Below, in pieces: positions 55,764-63,788 of a stretch of DNA of 64,000 nucleotides. Every line of letters begins with the position of its first letter. The stretch's first letter is position 1. The notes under the pieces were generated by a model, which was given only the letters and a program-made list of their open reading frames with translations, did not search any database and was not told where the DNA came from. A program made the translations under genes and the position numbers. Source of the stretch: Pyrinomonas methylaliphatogenes (GTDB lineage: Bacteria; Acidobacteriota; Blastocatellia; Pyrinomonadales; Pyrinomonadaceae); contig NZ_CBXV010000002.1 of assembly GCF_000820845.2 (NCBI RefSeq), positions 372,001 through 436,000 of the forward strand, read 5' to 3'.

Positions 55764-56761
55764 CTATGAATCGAGCGGGCGACGAACGCCCCTTGCACCT
55801 CGGTTCAAAACGTGCGTGTAAACCACGGTGGTTTTTACGTCCTTATGGCCTAATAGCTCCTGCACGATGCGGATATCGTCGCCCGACTTCAGCAAGCGGG
55901 TGGCGAAGCTGTGGCGCAGGGTGTGGATGCTGGCGTGTTTATGAATACCTGCTGCGCGTACGGCTTTTTTCATGGCGCGTTGAACAGCGTGCTCGAGCAG
56001 ATGATGCCGCCCTACCCGTCCCGTGCGGGGGGTCTTTTGAACGATGAGCCGCAGGAAATACATACTGCCAGCCCCACTCCTTGGCCGCGTTGGGGTATTT
56101 ACGAGCCAGAGCGTAGGGCATCTCGACCTCACCGAAGCCTTCTTCCAGGTCTAGCCGGTGCATACGCCGGGCGTACTCGAGCTGCCGGTGGAGCGCCGGA
56201 ACCAGTTTGCGTGGGAGCATGGTTCGCCGATCTCGCTCACCCTTGCCATCCCGAACTGTAACCTCTAGCCGCTCGAAATCCAAATCCTTCACCCGCAGGC
56301 TCAGGCATTCGGACAGGCGCATCCCGGTTCCATACAGCAGGCTCAAAATCAGATGGTGGATGCCCGACGCACGAGATAAAACCTGCTCTACCTCGCCACG
56401 GGTGAACACCACCGGAACCCGCCGAGAGCGCCTGGCCCTTTCAATGTTCTCGATGTCGGGTAGGTTGACTTTCAGCACCTGGCGGTACAAGAAGAGCAGC
56501 GCCGATAGGGCTACGTTCTGGGTAGAGGCCGCCACGTTGTTCTTGGTAGCCAAGTGGGATAGGTAAGCCCGGATTTCCTCGACCCCCATCTCGTTTGGGT
56601 GGCGCTTGACGTGAAAACGAATGAAGTCTAAATATGTAATACACATACGAGGTTTCCGTGCGTCGGCTCATATGCTTGAGCCTCAGAACATTGCGAACCT
56701 CGTTGAGAAAGGGGGAAGTTTTGGGCGAGTACCGTTTTTGGCTATGGGAAACATCTGACAT
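55764..56761 (-). pseudogene. intI: Integron-type tyrosine recombinase IntI, two frameshifts
   Basis: Three frames join into one IntI-like protein of about 330 residues. The N-terminus (FLNEVRNVLRLKHMSRRTE) continues after a one-base shift near 56630 as DFIRFHVKRHPNEMGVEEIR. The middle contains the catalytic Arg (GTGMRLSECL) and the IntI-specific inserted helix patch [21 protein letters not shown] second shift lies in a run of six G (56027-56032); removing one restores [12 protein letters not shown]. The C-terminal part has [20 protein letters not shown] and the tyrosine VYTHVLNRG. It is transcribed away from the cassettes, as in all integrons. Sequencing error at the G6 run is possible. Confidence 0.85.
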
Positions 56762-56854
56762 ATCGGATAACATCCTAGTACGGGGTGTTATATGGCAGCG
56801 TGACATTTAATCACTAGTTATGCCGCTTAACCCATCCAAACAAGGTGAAGGTCA
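56762..56854 (+). other. attI region and cassette 1 entry point
   Basis: Between the IntI start and the first cassette gene. GTTATGC at 56817-56823 is the expected recombination core (crossover after the G). The ten bases 56817-56826 are the exact reverse complement of 61292-61301, the first arm of attC1, as expected if the cassette spans 56818-61358. The flanking integrase-binding repeats of attI are not resolvable by eye. Confidence 0.65.
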
Positions 56855-58693
56855 ATGAAGATACGCCCTTTTTATCGCATTCCACCAGAAGACTGGCTTC
56901 TCACAACTAACGCTGATGTTGCCGCCGCTCAAAGGAAAGCCATAGAAAACCCCCAAATGGATGAGCGGGACATTGAAGAATATGTGCGGCAATGGGTTCT
57001 TCGTGAACTAATTGAAACCTATGGCTATCCTAGAGAGTGGCTTGGCGAGCGTATTGTTGTAGAAGAGAGTGTGCCAGTTGCTACTGCCGATAAAGAAGCT
57101 GACATCGCCCTAAAAAACGAACGTGGACGTCCCTACATTTTTATTGAGACTAAGAAAGCAGGATTGTCTGACCCAACGTTTGAGCGTGCTGAACGTCAGC
57201 TAGAGACCTACTTATCAGCAACACATACTGCTACTATTGGGATGTTGACAGACGCACATAGAGTTAAAGTTATTCGCAAGAAAATAGACCCCAATGACTT
57301 TGAGTATATCCCTGACATCCCTCATTATGAGCAAAAACTATCAACCAAGGGAAGACTTGTCCGTGAACTTCCGCCCAATGCAGACGCAAAGCGCATAAAG
57401 ACGGGCTTGAAGCCGATATCCCACCGGTATGAAAATCTTCTATTTGAAGCACATAGTGCAATCAGAGATATTGATGGCATGCACGCTGATGAAGCACTGG
57501 ATGAATTAAGCAAAATCTTGTACACAAAGATATATGATGAGCGCACAACCAGCACACAAGGGATAGGCGCAACTTTCCGTTTTCAGATTTACGGCGCAAG
57601 CAGCGCCTCCGAAGCGGCCTCCAACATCAGAGAGCTATATGATGAAGCGCGCAAAAGAGACATAGAGATTTTCGCGCAGAGAATCCCTGGTTATGAAAGA
57701 AGTCGTGGCGTGTTTTCAGCAAACATTAGACTGAGCGATGAGGCTCTCGCACGAGTCGTAGAGATATTACAAGACTATTCACTCATTGACAGCAACTTGG
57801 ATGTCAAAGGAAGAGCATTTCAACGCGTGTTGAGTTCAGCCATACGCGCAGGAATGGGGCAATATTTTACTCCCGATCCTGTAGTTCGCCTAGCGATAGA
57901 AATGTTGAATCCCACGCCACAAGATATTATTCTAGACCCTTTTTGCGGTTCAGGGCATTTCTTAACCCGTTCGCTGGACTTTGTGCTTGAACGTTATGGA
58001 GATAAAACTGACGAATACACGCTTCACGAATTTCGTTTTTTCAAGCTACATGGGATTGAGAAGTCGGACAGAATGGTTCGTATTGCAATGACTGACATGT
58101 TACTGCACGATGATGGTCATAGCAATATCCGTAATACCAACGCGCTGTTGAGTTTTGACAATTATCCAGACATAATAGCTCTCGGTGGAGACGAAAACAA
58201 GGATCCAGAGATATTTACTATCGTGGTGTCAAACCCTCCTTTTGGTTCACTTATGCAAGAAGAAGCACGTCGCATGCTTGGTAGATTTGAACTCGGCAGG
58301 AATAGGAAAACAGTCCCGCTTGAAATACTTGGTTTGGAGCGCTGTTTGCAATTTCTAAAGCCTGGTGGAAGAATGGCAATTGTATTACCAGACAGCATAT
58401 TGGCTAATAAGCAAACGGCGTATGTCCGAGAGTGGCTAGTGCATCAAGTCAAAATTCGCGCAATAGTGAGTTTGCCAATAGAAACTTTTATGCCTTATGG
58501 CGCAACCCACAAGACAAGTCTTTGTATATTCCGAAAATGGAAAACAGGCGAAAGCAAGAATTTTGACGCGCCAGTGTTCTTAGGGCGCATTGATAATATC
58601 GGTTATGACGCAACTGGTAGAGAACGCTCCAATTCAGAAGTAGATGAAATTGCTAGGCAATTTGCAGATTTCATTAACAGGAACGGATGGTAA
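56855..58693 (+). CDS. Fused restriction nuclease-N6-adenine methyltransferase (BcgI/type I-like)
   Basis: 612 residues, noticeably AT-richer than the chromosome around it. The N-terminal HsdR_N-type nuclease domain has D83 (EADIAL), E98-x-K100 (FIETKKA) and Q115-x3-Y119 (QLETY). A helical linker (about 180-330) leads to an HsdM-like methyltransferase: GQYFTP (335-340), SAM motif DPFCGSGHFL (361-370) and catalytic NPPF (460-463). All key residues are intact, so one chain could both cut and modify. ATG 56855 follows AAGGTGAAGG. With the half-size specificity gene next door this resembles a BcgI-type IIB or compact type I system. It sits as the first gene of integron cassette 1. Confidence 0.88.
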   Translation: MKIRPFYRIPPEDWLLTTNADVAAAQRKAIENPQMDERDIEEYVRQWVLRELIETYGYPREWLGERIVVEESVPVATADKEADIALKNERGRPYIFIETKKAGLSDPTFERAERQLETYLSATHTATIGMLTDAHRVKVIRKKIDPNDFEYIPDIPHYEQKLSTKGRLVRELPPNADAKRIKTGLKPISHRYENLLFEAHSAIRDIDGMHADEALDELSKILYTKIYDERTTSTQGIGATFRFQIYGASSASEAASNIRELYDEARKRDIEIFAQRIPGYERSRGVFSANIRLSDEALARVVEILQDYSLIDSNLDVKGRAFQRVLSSAIRAGMGQYFTPDPVVRLAIEMLNPTPQDIILDPFCGSGHFLTRSLDFVLERYGDKTDEYTLHEFRFFKLHGIEKSDRMVRIAMTDMLLHDDGHSNIRNTNALLSFDNYPDIIALGGDENKDPEIFTIVVSNPPFGSLMQEEARRMLGRFELGRNRKTVPLEILGLERCLQFLKPGGRMAIVLPDSILANKQTAYVREWLVHQVKIRAIVSLPIETFMPYGATHKTSLCIFRKWKTGESKNFDAPVFLGRIDNIGYDATGRERSNSEVDEIARQFADFINRNGW

Positions 58694-58696
58694 ATC

Positions 58697-59503
58697 ATGT
58701 GGGTATCGGAAACTCACACAATTGCCGATTTGATAAAGAAGGGTGTTTTCAAATCAGAATTCTTTGATGAGAATTTTGGAGCATCTCTTAACGGTGTACA
58801 GCAGTATGAATTGGTTGAAATCTCTCAGGTTGCTACACTGAGACGCGAATTGATTAACCCTGCTTTGTATCCAGAGCACACTTTTAACTACTTGAGTCTT
58901 GCAAATATCGCCTCGGACACGGGAGAATTAGTTGATTTTTCACCAATTAAGGGAAGAGAGATAAGAAGTCAGTGTAAAGTCTTTCATGAAGATGACTTGT
59001 TATATGGACGACTTCGCCCTTATTTAAACAAATGTTACCATGCTAAAGGCCCAGTTAAGGAAGGGGTTTGCACTGGTGAGTGTATTGTCATTACGCCAGA
59101 CAAAGACAAAGTTTTGCCAGAGTATCTTCACGCACTATTGCTGAGCAAGTTTGTCCAAGAACAGGTTAACTATTTGCAAACTGGTTCTTCGCGTCCTCGT
59201 GTGCTAGAAGATGACTTCATGACCATCAGAATTCCCTTAATGCCGAAGGAGAAACAGCAATTTGTCGCTAATATACATACTTCTATGTTACGCCTTAGGC
59301 GACAGAAGCTACTGGAGCGTAGCGAATTGCTTCGGATAGCTCGTCATGCAATAGAAAGGCTTGCATCTGGAGAAAATGTAGAAGATGTTAATTTGCTGGA
59401 CATTGCCGTACCTGACGAACCAGAGTTCAACAATCCGTTGCCACAAGAATATCAGGCGTCTCCAAAAGCATTACAAATGGAACGTCATAGACCCCACAGC
59501 TAA
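58697..59503 (+). CDS. hsdS: Restriction-modification specificity subunit, single TRD, 3' end altered by ISC insertion
   Basis: HsdS-like protein of 268 residues with one target recognition domain (YELVEISQVATLRRELINP ... LLYGRLRPYLNKC ... GSSRPRVLEDDF) and one conserved helix (residues about 185-225). Full HsdS has two TRDs, so this is a half subunit that would dimerise, as in BcgI. It starts three bases after the methyltransferase stop. The present stop (TAA 59501-59503) lies inside the left end of the ISC element. The original C-terminus probably ended within a few codons beyond the insertion, so function may be retained. Confidence 0.82.
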   Translation: MWVSETHTIADLIKKGVFKSEFFDENFGASLNGVQQYELVEISQVATLRRELINPALYPEHTFNYLSLANIASDTGELVDFSPIKGREIRSQCKVFHEDDLLYGRLRPYLNKCYHAKGPVKEGVCTGECIVITPDKDKVLPEYLHALLLSKFVQEQVNYLQTGSSRPRVLEDDFMTIRIPLMPKEKQQFVANIHTSMLRLRRQKLLERSELLRIARHAIERLASGENVEDVNLLDIAVPDEPEFNNPLPQEYQASPKALQMERHRPHS

Positions 59504-59801
59504 AGCCGGGGGCTTGAAGGTGCCTGAGAGCCTTCAGCGCAGGCCGGTACCTATGACCAGCCCGAGCGCCGGAGCCCGAAGGACAAGGGCGATGAAGGCG
59601 CTACGTTCTGTGGGTGATGGCACCCTGGGGTGCTTCTCCAGCTCCAGGCCCTGCCGCCTGCGGTTAAACAGCGAGCTGGGGGTGTAAGCGAGCCGTGCCA
59701 CAGGCGTAAAAAGCCCACGGAACATGGGCGAGGAGAGATGCGGGCGGAGTCCATCCCGCGCGTCACCAGGCCCGTAAGGGCACTCCGAAAGGAGTGGGAA
59801 G
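59475..59801 (+). ncRNA. Predicted IscB omega RNA
   Basis: The 311 bases between the element's left end and iscB contain no gene but many short inverted repeats, for example around GGTGATGGCACC (59612), CCCTGGGG (59625), GCCGTGCCACAGGC (59692-59705) and CACTCCGAAAGGAGTG (59781-59796) just before the ATG. This layout, with the hairpin immediately before the start, is that of known IscB omega RNAs. The guide should be the roughly 16 bases flanking the left end (about 59475-59490, inside hsdS). Expression is not shown by the sequence. Confidence 0.75.
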
Positions 59802-61248
59802 ATGGTTTTCGTTTTGGACAAGCACAAGAAGCCGCTGATGCACTGCACGGAAAAACGTGCGCGGTTACTACTACGGCGTGGGCGGGCTGTCGTCCACAGA
59901 CTGGCCCCGTTCACGATCCGGCTCAAAGACAGGGTACTGGAGGATTCCGAAGTCCAACCGTTGCGACTCAAGCTGGACCCGGGATCAAAGGTCACGGGCG
60001 TGGCCGTGCTCCGGGGCAATGAAGTGGTGTTCCTGGGAGAGATCCGCCACCGGACAGACATCGAGGATCGGCTGGCGAAACGCCGGATGATCCGGCGGAA
60101 TCGGCGGAACCGCAAGACGCGGTACCGGAAGCCCCGTTTCCTGAACCGGCACCCGGAGAAGTGCGCCGGGTGCGGGAAGAATGCGAAACACGGTAGCCGG
60201 TACTGTCGCAAGTGCGGACAGCGGCCAAAGGACAACGGGAACCGCAACACATGGTTGCCCCCATCGCTTGGGGCGCGAGTGGACCAAGTGATCCATGCTC
60301 TGCGGAAGATTCGGGTGCCGATTGGCGGGATTTCGGTAGAGTTGGTGCGGTTCGACACGCAGAAGTTGGAGAACCCCGAGATTTCGGGTGTCGAGTACCA
60401 GCATGGGACTTTGTTTGGCTATGAAGTGAAGGAGTACTTGCTTCAGAAGTTTGGCCACCGGTGCGCGTACTGCGGTGGTGAATCGGGTGACCCAGTGCTG
60501 GAAGTGGAGCACGTGGTGCCGCGCTCCAGGGGCGGGAGCAACCGTGTGTCGAACCTGGCGATTGCCTGCCGAACGTGCAACGAGGAGAAAGATGATTGGA
60601 TGCCGGGCGAGTGGCTGGCGATTCTTCAGCGGTCGAAACGAAAGCTGGACCGGGTACGGGCGGTAAATGTGCAGAAAGCCCTTGGGCAACTGAAAGTGCC
60701 GCTGAGAGACGCCGCGGCGGCGAACACCACCCGCTGGGCGCTGTACCGGCGTCTTCTGTCCCTGGGATCTTCGGTGAAAGTGGGGAGTGGCGGACGGACG
60801 AAGTGGAACCGGGAGCGGATGGGGCTGCCGAAAGAACATTACTGGGACGCGGCTTGTGTGGGGGACAGCACCCCAGAGAAGTTCCGGGACATTCCCGCTT
60901 GGGTGCAGGTATGGGAGGCGAAGGGCCGTGGAAACCGGCAGGTATGCCGGACGGACAAACAAGGTTTCCCGGTCCGGCACTTAAACCGGCAGAAGAGGCA
61001 TTTTGGGTTTCAGACGGGGGATATGGTCGTAGCTGAGATACCGCGCGGGAAATACGCGGGGAGATGGAGGGGGCGGGTAGCGGTGCGCGCCAATGGGTGG
61101 TTCGACTTGTTCGTGGGAGGAGTACGTGCGGTGCAAGGCGTGAGCCACAAGCATTGCCGGGTGCTGCAACGTGGTGACGGGTGGGCGTATGAGCAGATGA
61201 GGCCTGCTGTCGCGGCTCCTCCCCATGCCTAAAGGCAGGGGATTCCGC
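59491..61248 (+). mobile_element. ISC (IS200/IS605-like) element carrying IscB, no transposase
   Basis: The left end has a CCCC...GGGG hairpin around GCTAAAGC (59492-59512); the right end has a CCCCATGCCT/AGGCAGGGG hairpin (61221-61241). There is no target duplication, as expected for single-strand-transposing elements. No Y1 transposase (TnpA) is encoded, so it would move only in trans. ATAG occurs in both flanks (59487-59490 and 61253-61256), so the border is uncertain by a few bases. It is inserted at the 3' end of the specificity gene within integron cassette 1. Confidence 0.85.
59802..61232 (+). CDS. iscB: IscB RNA-guided nuclease (RuvC plus HNH)
   Basis: 476 residues, the OMEGA ancestor type of Cas9. 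A PLMP-like N-terminus (PLMH, 11-14), RuvC-I D59 (LKLDPGSKVTG), an Arg-rich bridge helix (90-112), RuvC-II E180 (GISVELVRFD), an HNH domain with zinc cysteines C221, C224, C256, C259 and catalytic H237 (LEVEHVVPRSRGG), RuvC-III with D349 (EHYWDAACVG), and a C-terminal TAM-interaction region (400-470). All catalytic residues are present. Unusual is an extra CxxC...CxxC zinc knuckle (C121, C124, C135, C138) between the bridge helix and WLPPSL. The stop codon lies in the right-end hairpin. A GGAGTGGG site precedes ATG 59802. Confidence 0.93.
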   Translation: MVFVLDKHKKPLMHCTEKRARLLLRRGRAVVHRLAPFTIRLKDRVLEDSEVQPLRLKLDPGSKVTGVAVLRGNEVVFLGEIRHRTDIEDRLAKRRMIRRNRRNRKTRYRKPRFLNRHPEKCAGCGKNAKHGSRYCRKCGQRPKDNGNRNTWLPPSLGARVDQVIHALRKIRVPIGGISVELVRFDTQKLENPEISGVEYQHGTLFGYEVKEYLLQKFGHRCAYCGGESGDPVLEVEHVVPRSRGGSNRVSNLAIACRTCNEEKDDWMPGEWLAILQRSKRKLDRVRAVNVQKALGQLKVPLRDAAAANTTRWALYRRLLSLGSSVKVGSGGRTKWNRERMGLPKEHYWDAACVGDSTPEKFRDIPAWVQVWEAKGRGNRQVCRTDKQGFPVRHLNRQKRHFGFQTGDMVVAEIPRGKYAGRWRGRVAVRANGWFDLFVGGVRAVQGVSHKHCRVLQRGDGWAYEQMRPAVAAPPHA

Positions 61249-61291
61249 CACGATAGTTTCCGTTGAAATCGAGTAATCTCTCAAGTAAGGT

Positions 61292-61364
61292 GCGGCATAA
61301 CACGCGCTTCCAGCCGACACGCTTCGCTTCGCTCCGCGTGCGGCTGAACCGCCGCCCGTTAGAC
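61292..61364 (+). other. attC1 integron recombination site
   Basis: Arm R'' GCGGCATAAC (61292-61301) and R' GTTAGAC (61358-61364) flank a hairpin: CAGCCG (61311-61316), an unpaired A (61317), CACGC (61318-61322), loop, GCGTG (61336-61340), CGGCTG (61341-61346). The single extrahelical base is the classical strand-selection feature of attC. R'' is the exact reverse complement of the cassette 1 start at 56817-56826. Confidence 0.88.
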
Positions 61365-61513
61365 GGCTCCCGCTGATGAGAGAGCGGTTTTAACCGGAGA
61401 AGGCATGTCATGGGCCTGGACCTGCGATGAGGGCCGGTGTATATGAGCCGCACAACAACGGGTTGCAGCGGGCGATCCCACGCTGCGCGCGGAACTGCCG
61501 CTGAACCGGAGCG
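61359..61513 (+). other. Mini-cassette of 155 bp with a 13-codon reading frame
   Basis: Bounded by the crossover points of attC1 and attC2. The only reading frame with a ribosome site (GGAGAAGG, 61396-61403) is 61405-61446, encoding MSWAWTCDEGRCI. It may be a leader peptide, a promoter cassette, or simply a gene-less cassette. Confidence 0.5.
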
Positions 61514-61519
61514 TTAGAC
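61447..61519 (+). other. attC2 integron recombination site
   Basis: GCCGCACAAC (61447-61456) and GTTAGAC (61513-61519) flank a stem pairing GGTT-G-CAGCGG (61461-61471, with one extrahelical G) with CCGCTGAACC (61498-61507). The outer arm is a partial complement of the cassette start, with GCCG and AAC conserved. Confidence 0.8.
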
Positions 61520-62573: not shown

Positions 62574-63788
62574 GGAATTATGTGTAGGGGTTTGTGTAAA
62601 AAGAGGGGGTACCAGACAAGAGGAGGTACCCCATGGACCAGGATACCCTGCAGGCGATGTTACGGGAAGCGGTGAAGGAAACGGTGACCGAGGTGCTCCA
62701 GTTTCTCCTGGACGTTGACCGGGACGCCTTCCTCCGCCAACATGGCGGGCGCAAGAACGGCCACTACCCCCGCAAACTGGAGACCACCTTCCATCCCTCG
62801 GGATCGGGAAGGGCGGTATTACCCCAGCTTGCTCCAGCCCTACGCCCGGCACCAGGTGGACGTGGGGGAGGTGGCCGTGGCCCTGTACGCCGCCGGGGTC
62901 ACCCAGCGCAAGGCGGCCGAGGTGATGAGCCTGCTTTTGGGCCACCGGTACTCCCACGAGACCGTGAGCGCCCTCACCGATGGGGTGCTTGAAAAGGTAA
63001 GCGCCTTCCGCCAAAGGCCGCTGCCTGAGGAGATGGCCTGGGTCTACCTGGACGGCTTCTTTCTGAAGGTTCACAGGGAAGGTCTGGGGGTGGAGAAAGA
63101 AGCCGTTTACGTAGCCCTGGGCGTCACCCCTTGCGGGGAGAGGCAGATCCTGGGCTTTTGGCTTTTACCCACGGAAAACGCCTCGGCCTGGGAGGGGGTT
63201 CTGAAGGAGCTATGGGGGAGGGGCCTGCGGCGGGTTTTGCTCTTCGTCACCGATGGCCTACCGGGGATAGAGGAGGCTATCCGCCGGGTGTATCCCCAGG
63301 CGGGGTGGCAGCGGTGTGTGGTGCACCAGGTGAGGGGCAGCCTGGGCTAGGTGCGGACACGGGACAGGGCTCCCCTGATCCAGGACTTGAGGGGGGTCTA
63401 CATGGCGGAGAGCCGGCAAGAGGCGTTGCGGAAGCTGGAGGGGCTCAGGGAGGTACCCTTCCCTAGTGGCGGCCTGGTGGGAGAACTCAGGGGCCCTGCT
63501 TCGCTTCTACGATTACCCCCAGGTGCTCTGGCCATATCTTCAAAGCACCAACCTCATGGAGCGGTTTATCCGTGAAGTGCGGCGAGGAACCAAGGTGAGG
63601 GATCACAAGTTCCCAGGCGAAGGAGCGGTGTACAAGCTTTTGTACCTGGAGGGGGAGCGCCAGGAAGGGCGGTGGGCGGAGCGCAAGCTCAAGGGTTTTG
63701 CTGACGTGCAGGAAGTACTGGAGAGGATGCTTCAGGAGCGGTATGCCCCCCGTACACAGACGCTTACACATAAATCTTGACACGACCG
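62563..63788 (+). mobile_element. IS256-family insertion sequence, Thermus/Meiothermus-like
   Basis: Terminal inverted repeats: the left end (62563 onward, CGGTCGTGT...TTATGTGTA) and the reverse complement of the right end (to 63788) agree at most of the first 28 positions, including nine identical outer bases. No 8-9 bp target duplication is found, and the two flanks carry unrelated gene fragments. Confidence 0.78.
62633..63780 (+). pseudogene. IS256-family transposase, frameshifted
   Basis: Three pieces make up one transposase. 62633 to about 62795 gives MDQDTLQAMLREAVKETVTE...; a shift moves to another frame with QVDVGEVAVALYAAGVTQRKA, the first catalytic Asp in WVYLDGFFLKV and the second in LLFVTDGLPGIEEA, ending at a TAG (63348-63350) after CVVHQVRGSLG; reading resumes and shifts again near 63460 to WWENSGALLRFYDYP with the STNLMERFIREVRRGTKV motif. 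Two frameshifts and a nonsense codon make it inactive. Protein style is Thermus-like (high Glu/Leu/Arg). Confidence 0.88.

What the first reader, a model, noticed from the sequence alone, without database searches (positions are those of the whole stretch)
59475..61248. Apparently intact IscB-omega RNA system lodged in a restriction-modification specificity gene
All RuvC and HNH catalytic residues are present and the upstream 311 bases have omega-RNA architecture. The predicted guide comes from the hsdS 3' end, so the element would target the uninterrupted hsdS allele. That offers a mechanism for keeping the element in place and eliminating empty sites. It lacks TnpA.
Basis: partly seen in the sequence, partly recalled or inferred. 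Interest (0 to 1): 0.85.

Follow-up and report, generated by a model that had tools for sequence, protein, structure and literature searches.

The report
Ordinary intact IscB-guide RNA mobile element
A small mobile element encoding an RNA-guided DNA-cutting enzyme (IscB, of the family from which Cas9 arose) sits in the last few codons of a restriction-system gene carried by an integron; it looks intact and would be expected to cut any copy of that site lacking the element, but it is a typical member of a common family.

Summary
An IscB (NF040563, 384 bits, cut-off 175) and an upstream omega RNA (Rfam HEARO, 128.8 bits, cut-off 83) are present and look intact: RuvC/HNH motifs align with solved IscBs, dN/dS is about 0.15 against the nearest relative, and 36 of 61 RNA pairs show compensatory change among relatives. 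Related elements move the ends to 59484 and 61262. The right flank is TTGAAA: 25 of 26 related elements stop before [AGT]TGA, and TTGAAA fits OgeuIscB's published motif NWRRNA. The guide is the hsdS 3' end (GCATTACAAATGGAAC); the rejoined site is a predicted target, the occupied site is not. No TnpA lies inside, but a TnpB element elsewhere in the genome has nearly the same ends, so mobilisation in trans is plausible. Retention by cutting empty sites is the known model for such elements and is inferred here, not shown. New member of a known kind.

The parts
59484..61262 (+). complete IscB element (left end GTCATAGACCCC..., right end ...GATAGTTTCCG)
   Evidence: homology with L025 (84% DNA identity) starts and stops here; 26-element comparison of right ends and left ends
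59468..59483 (+). predicted guide GCATTACAAATGGAAC (3' end of hsdS); 16 nt length is assumed
   Evidence: flank immediately 5' of the omega RNA; occurs once in the genome with up to 2 mismatches allowed
59484..59741 (+). omega RNA / HEARO RNA scaffold
   Evidence: Rfam RF02033, 128.8 bits, full model 1-211; consensus fold with 36 of 61 pairs compensated
59802..61232 (+). iscB, 476 aa, intact
   Evidence: NF040563 384 bits; Pfam RRXRR and HNH; matches solved IscBs; dN/dS about 0.15 vs L025
61263..61268 (+). predicted target-adjacent motif TTGAAA of the empty site
   Evidence: [AGT]TGA follows 25 of 26 elements; fits NWRRNA of OgeuIscB (PMC11900391)
58697..59503 (+). specificity subunit gene; last codons replaced by element sequence (268 aa now, 266 in the rejoined site)
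   Evidence: PADLOC Specificity_II 121.7 bits over residues 27-202; reconstruction
56855..58693 (+). DNA methyltransferase with N-terminal HSDR_N nuclease-like domain (type II-like restriction-modification)
   Evidence: Pfam N6_Mtase + HSDR_N_2; PADLOC MTase_II 500.7 bits
55764..56806 (-). integron integrase (intI), in broken frames
   Evidence: TIGR02249, 269.7 and 141.8 bits in two frames; frames printed
61295..61364 (+). attC-like recombination site closing the hsdM-hsdS-IscB cassette
   Evidence: boxes GCATAAC/GTTAGAC and symmetric stem; bottom-strand DNA fold z -1.9
61450..61519 (+). second attC-like site
   Evidence: GCACAAC/GTTAGAC, 28 cross pairs; bottom-strand fold not exceptional, z -1.0

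Best explanation
This is an IscB-type IS200/IS605-like element without its own transposase. It is transcribed with or after hsdS into an omega RNA whose 5' guide copies the flanking hsdS sequence. IscB loaded with this RNA would cut DNA carrying GCATTACAAATGGAAC followed by TTGAAA, that is, the same site without the element; repair from an element-bearing copy would then restore the element. The resident site is spared because the guide-matching DNA is followed there by GTCATA instead of the motif. Shown: ends, intact protein and RNA, guide and motif anatomy. Inferred: transcription, cleavage, repair, and past mobilisation by a TnpA acting in trans.
For: HEARO hit, IscB equivalog hit, catalytic motifs aligned to solved IscBs, purifying selection in the lineage, RNA covariation. 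Element ends are seen across 26 elements, including near-identical copies at different sites (L046/L051, L042/L045/L056, L040/L044) whose similarity stops at GTCA on the left and [AGT]TGA on the right. The rejoined site reads hsdS in frame to a stop just before attC. A TnpB element in the same genome (contig C1) carries nearly the same two ends and an adjacent ATGA.
Against: No natural empty site was found: hsdS relatives reach only 36% identity, and exact guide matches in viral contigs look like chance (3 of 96 followed by [AGT]TGA, none by NWRRNA). No expression or cleavage data. The only Y1 TnpA in the genome belongs to another IS605 whose ends match only partly.
Confidence: 0.8

Rival explanations
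1. A stranded relic: protein and RNA are intact only because the insertion is recent; nothing expresses or mobilises it now and it has no present effect on the hsdS site.
For: Single full copy in the genome; no TnpA inside; the only TnpA has partly different ends; no promoter excess upstream.
Against: dN/dS about 0.15 shows selection on the lineage, though not necessarily in this host; TnpB elements share its ends.
Confidence: 0.15
2. A domesticated IscB serving the restriction cassette, for example by cutting rival cassettes or incoming DNA that carries the unoccupied hsdS.
For: It lies inside a cassette that also carries a restriction system, and the guide would hit hsdS alleles without the element.
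Against: Element ends are intact and standard; the guide is simply the flanking DNA; no related locus found keeps this pairing.
Confidence: 0.04

Closest known systems
IscB / HEARO OMEGA systems (NF040563, RF02033)
   Same: omega RNA upstream of iscB, guide from the 5' flank, RRXRR + HNH + RuvC, motif on the 3' side
   Different: nothing essential; the motif is NTGA-type as in its close relatives
IscB element of Candidatus Carbobacillus altaicus (L025)
   Same: 85% protein and 84% DNA identity over the whole element; both followed by TTGAAAT
   Different: other insertion site, no restriction gene or integron at the junction
IS200/IS605-type TnpB elements
   Same: a TnpB element on contig C1 of this genome has nearly the same two ends and an adjacent ATGA
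   Different: carries TnpB on the opposite strand, so it would read the same motif from the other side

Membership tests
IscB OMEGA nuclease | IscB protein above curated model cut-off | tested here: met
   NF040563 384.3 bits, cut-off 175
IscB OMEGA nuclease | RuvC and HNH catalytic motifs | tested here: met
   D59, E180, H237, H346, D349 align with solved IscBs
IscB OMEGA nuclease | omega RNA directly upstream | tested here: met
   RF02033 full-length hit; covariation
IscB OMEGA nuclease | element inserted next to its target-adjacent motif | tested here: met
   TTGAAA; [AGT]TGA in 25 of 26 elements. Ends were placed partly by eye, but near-identical copies at different sites fix them independently
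IscB OMEGA nuclease | RNA-guided cleavage | not testable with these tools
   needs biochemistry
autonomous IS200/IS605 transposon | own Y1 TnpA | tested here: not met
   no TnpA in the element; one in the genome, in another IS605
integron gene cassette | intI beside an array with attC sites in cassette orientation | tested here: met
   TIGR02249 in two frames; two attC-like sites by box and stem scan. No dedicated attC model was available and the folds are only moderately better than shuffles
type I restriction specificity subunit | two target-recognition domains, about 400 aa | tested here: not met
   268 aa; best PADLOC profile is a 227-position type II specificity subunit

The most novel reading that the evidence does not exclude
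An RNA-guided nuclease riding in an integron gene cassette acts as a cassette-level drive: any copy of the restriction cassette without the element is cut and converted, so IscB spreads along with cassette exchange.
Probability: 0.1. Interest if true: 0.5.

Novelty: new member of a known kind. Interest (0 to 1): 0.28.

Why it matters
It is a clean example of a guide-programmed element with well-defined ends and a readable target. Its location in an integron shows that gene cassettes can carry such elements; a limited paper search found no report of that, which does not establish novelty.

Tried and rejected
Empty site in public data: hsdS relatives in 145 related genomes, viral contigs and plasmids gave no close allele. 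Exact guide search in viral contigs gave chance-like matches. Integron integrases beside related IscBs: none in the flanks held. Promoter scan of the region: no more hits than shuffles. The original papers on IscB, on retention and on HEARO (Altae-Tran, Meers, Weinberg) are not held. Rejected: that the insertion inactivates hsdS (only four terminal codons change); that the restriction system is type I.

Full report
Observation. The window holds an IscB gene at 59802-61232 (NCBIfam NF040563, 384.3 bits against a cut-off of 175; Pfam RRXRR and HNH) and a HEARO/omega RNA at 59484-59741 (Rfam RF02033, 128.8 bits against 83; alignment). The catalytic motifs LDPGSK (D59), VELVRF (E180), VEHVVPR (H237) and PKEHYWDAA (H346, D349) are present and line up with solved IscBs. 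Against the nearest relative, L025 from Candidatus Carbobacillus altaicus (404 of 476 residues identical), dN is 0.085 and dS 0.57, a ratio of about 0.15. A consensus fold of 14 upstream RNAs has 61 pairs, 36 with at least one compensatory change. The RNA alone folds better than shuffles (z -2.5).

Ends and target. Similarity to L025 begins at GTCATAGACCCC (59484) and ends near TTTCCG|TTGAAAT. In 26 related elements including this one, 25 end before [AGT]TGA; L036 has GTGG. I placed these ends partly by eye, but near-identical copies at different sites (L046/L051, L042/L045/L056, L040/L044) diverge at the same points; left ends begin with GTCA in all but one of those compared. The element is therefore taken as 59484-61262. 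Joining the flanks gives hsdS ...KALQMELEIE-stop, 266 codons, against ...KALQMERHRPHS-stop, 268 codons, with the insert. Only the last four codons change, well beyond the conserved part of the protein (residues 27-202). The adjacent TTGAAA fits NWRRNA reported for OgeuIscB (PMC11900391); the occupied site has GTCATA there, which does not. The 16-nt guide occurs once in the genome.

Context. The minus-strand frames at 55764-56806 are an integron integrase in broken frames (TIGR02249, 269.7 and 141.8 bits; the only match in the genome above the cut-off). Two attC-like sites lie at 61295-61364 and 61450-61519; these rest on box and stem symmetry, and the DNA folds are only moderately better than shuffles. 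The methyltransferase and specificity genes, the IscB element and the first attC-like site thus form one cassette. The specificity protein matches a type II profile best (121.7 bits), the methyltransferase also (500.7 bits), and the latter carries an HSDR_N domain, so the system resembles BcgI-like type II enzymes rather than type I; the BcgI comparison is from general knowledge and was not tested directly.

Mobility. No TnpA lies in the element. The genome has one Y1 TnpA, in a TnpA-TnpB element on contig C4; one of its ends shares a 17-nt core with the IscB left end, the other does not clearly match. On contig C1 a TnpB-like ORF lies in an element whose two ends match the IscB element at 92% over 26 and 37 bases and which is followed by CTGATGA; another TnpB on C4 is bordered by GTCATAGACCCCAC. 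Shared ends suggest that one TnpA served both kinds of element. That few IscB/HEARO nucleases have a neighbouring TnpA is reported (PMC9755519).

Mechanism. The retention model, cutting of sites that lost the element followed by repair from an occupied copy, is described for TnpB in PMC11870625, which cites Meers 2023; that paper and the first IscB paper are not held. Everything anatomical that the model needs is here; expression, cutting and repair are inferred. No natural empty site was found.

Verdict. A well-preserved but ordinary IscB element.

Noticed in passing
55764-56806 and 61295-61519: Chromosomal integron with an integrase in broken frames and two attC-like sites about 85 bases apart with no gene between them.
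   Followed up: partly
related IscB loci L025-L068, right ends: Of 26 IscB elements, 14 are followed by an open frame of 60 or more codons starting at the adjacent [AGT]TG (29% expected from other [AGT]TGA sites in the same loci, p 0.0075), and several ends carry GGAG or AGAGG just before it: elements may insert at start codons and resupply a ribosome-binding site. Related elements are not independent, so the p value is optimistic.
   Followed up: partly
own genome C4:576645-578280 (L063:8646-10280): Second IscB (52% identity in the best segment) with a weaker HEARO hit (72.7 bits), next to a TnpB gene.
   Followed up: partly
L178:268-1541 (own genome C1): TnpB-like element with nearly the same ends as the IscB element, nuclease gene on the opposite strand.
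   Followed up: partly
62633-63780: IS256-family transposase split over several frames.
   Followed up: no
L064:8824-13539 (beyond the window end): A HerA-like ATPase, a gene with a weak type II restriction-enzyme match and a DNA methyltransferase in a row: a possible defence cluster.
   Followed up: partly
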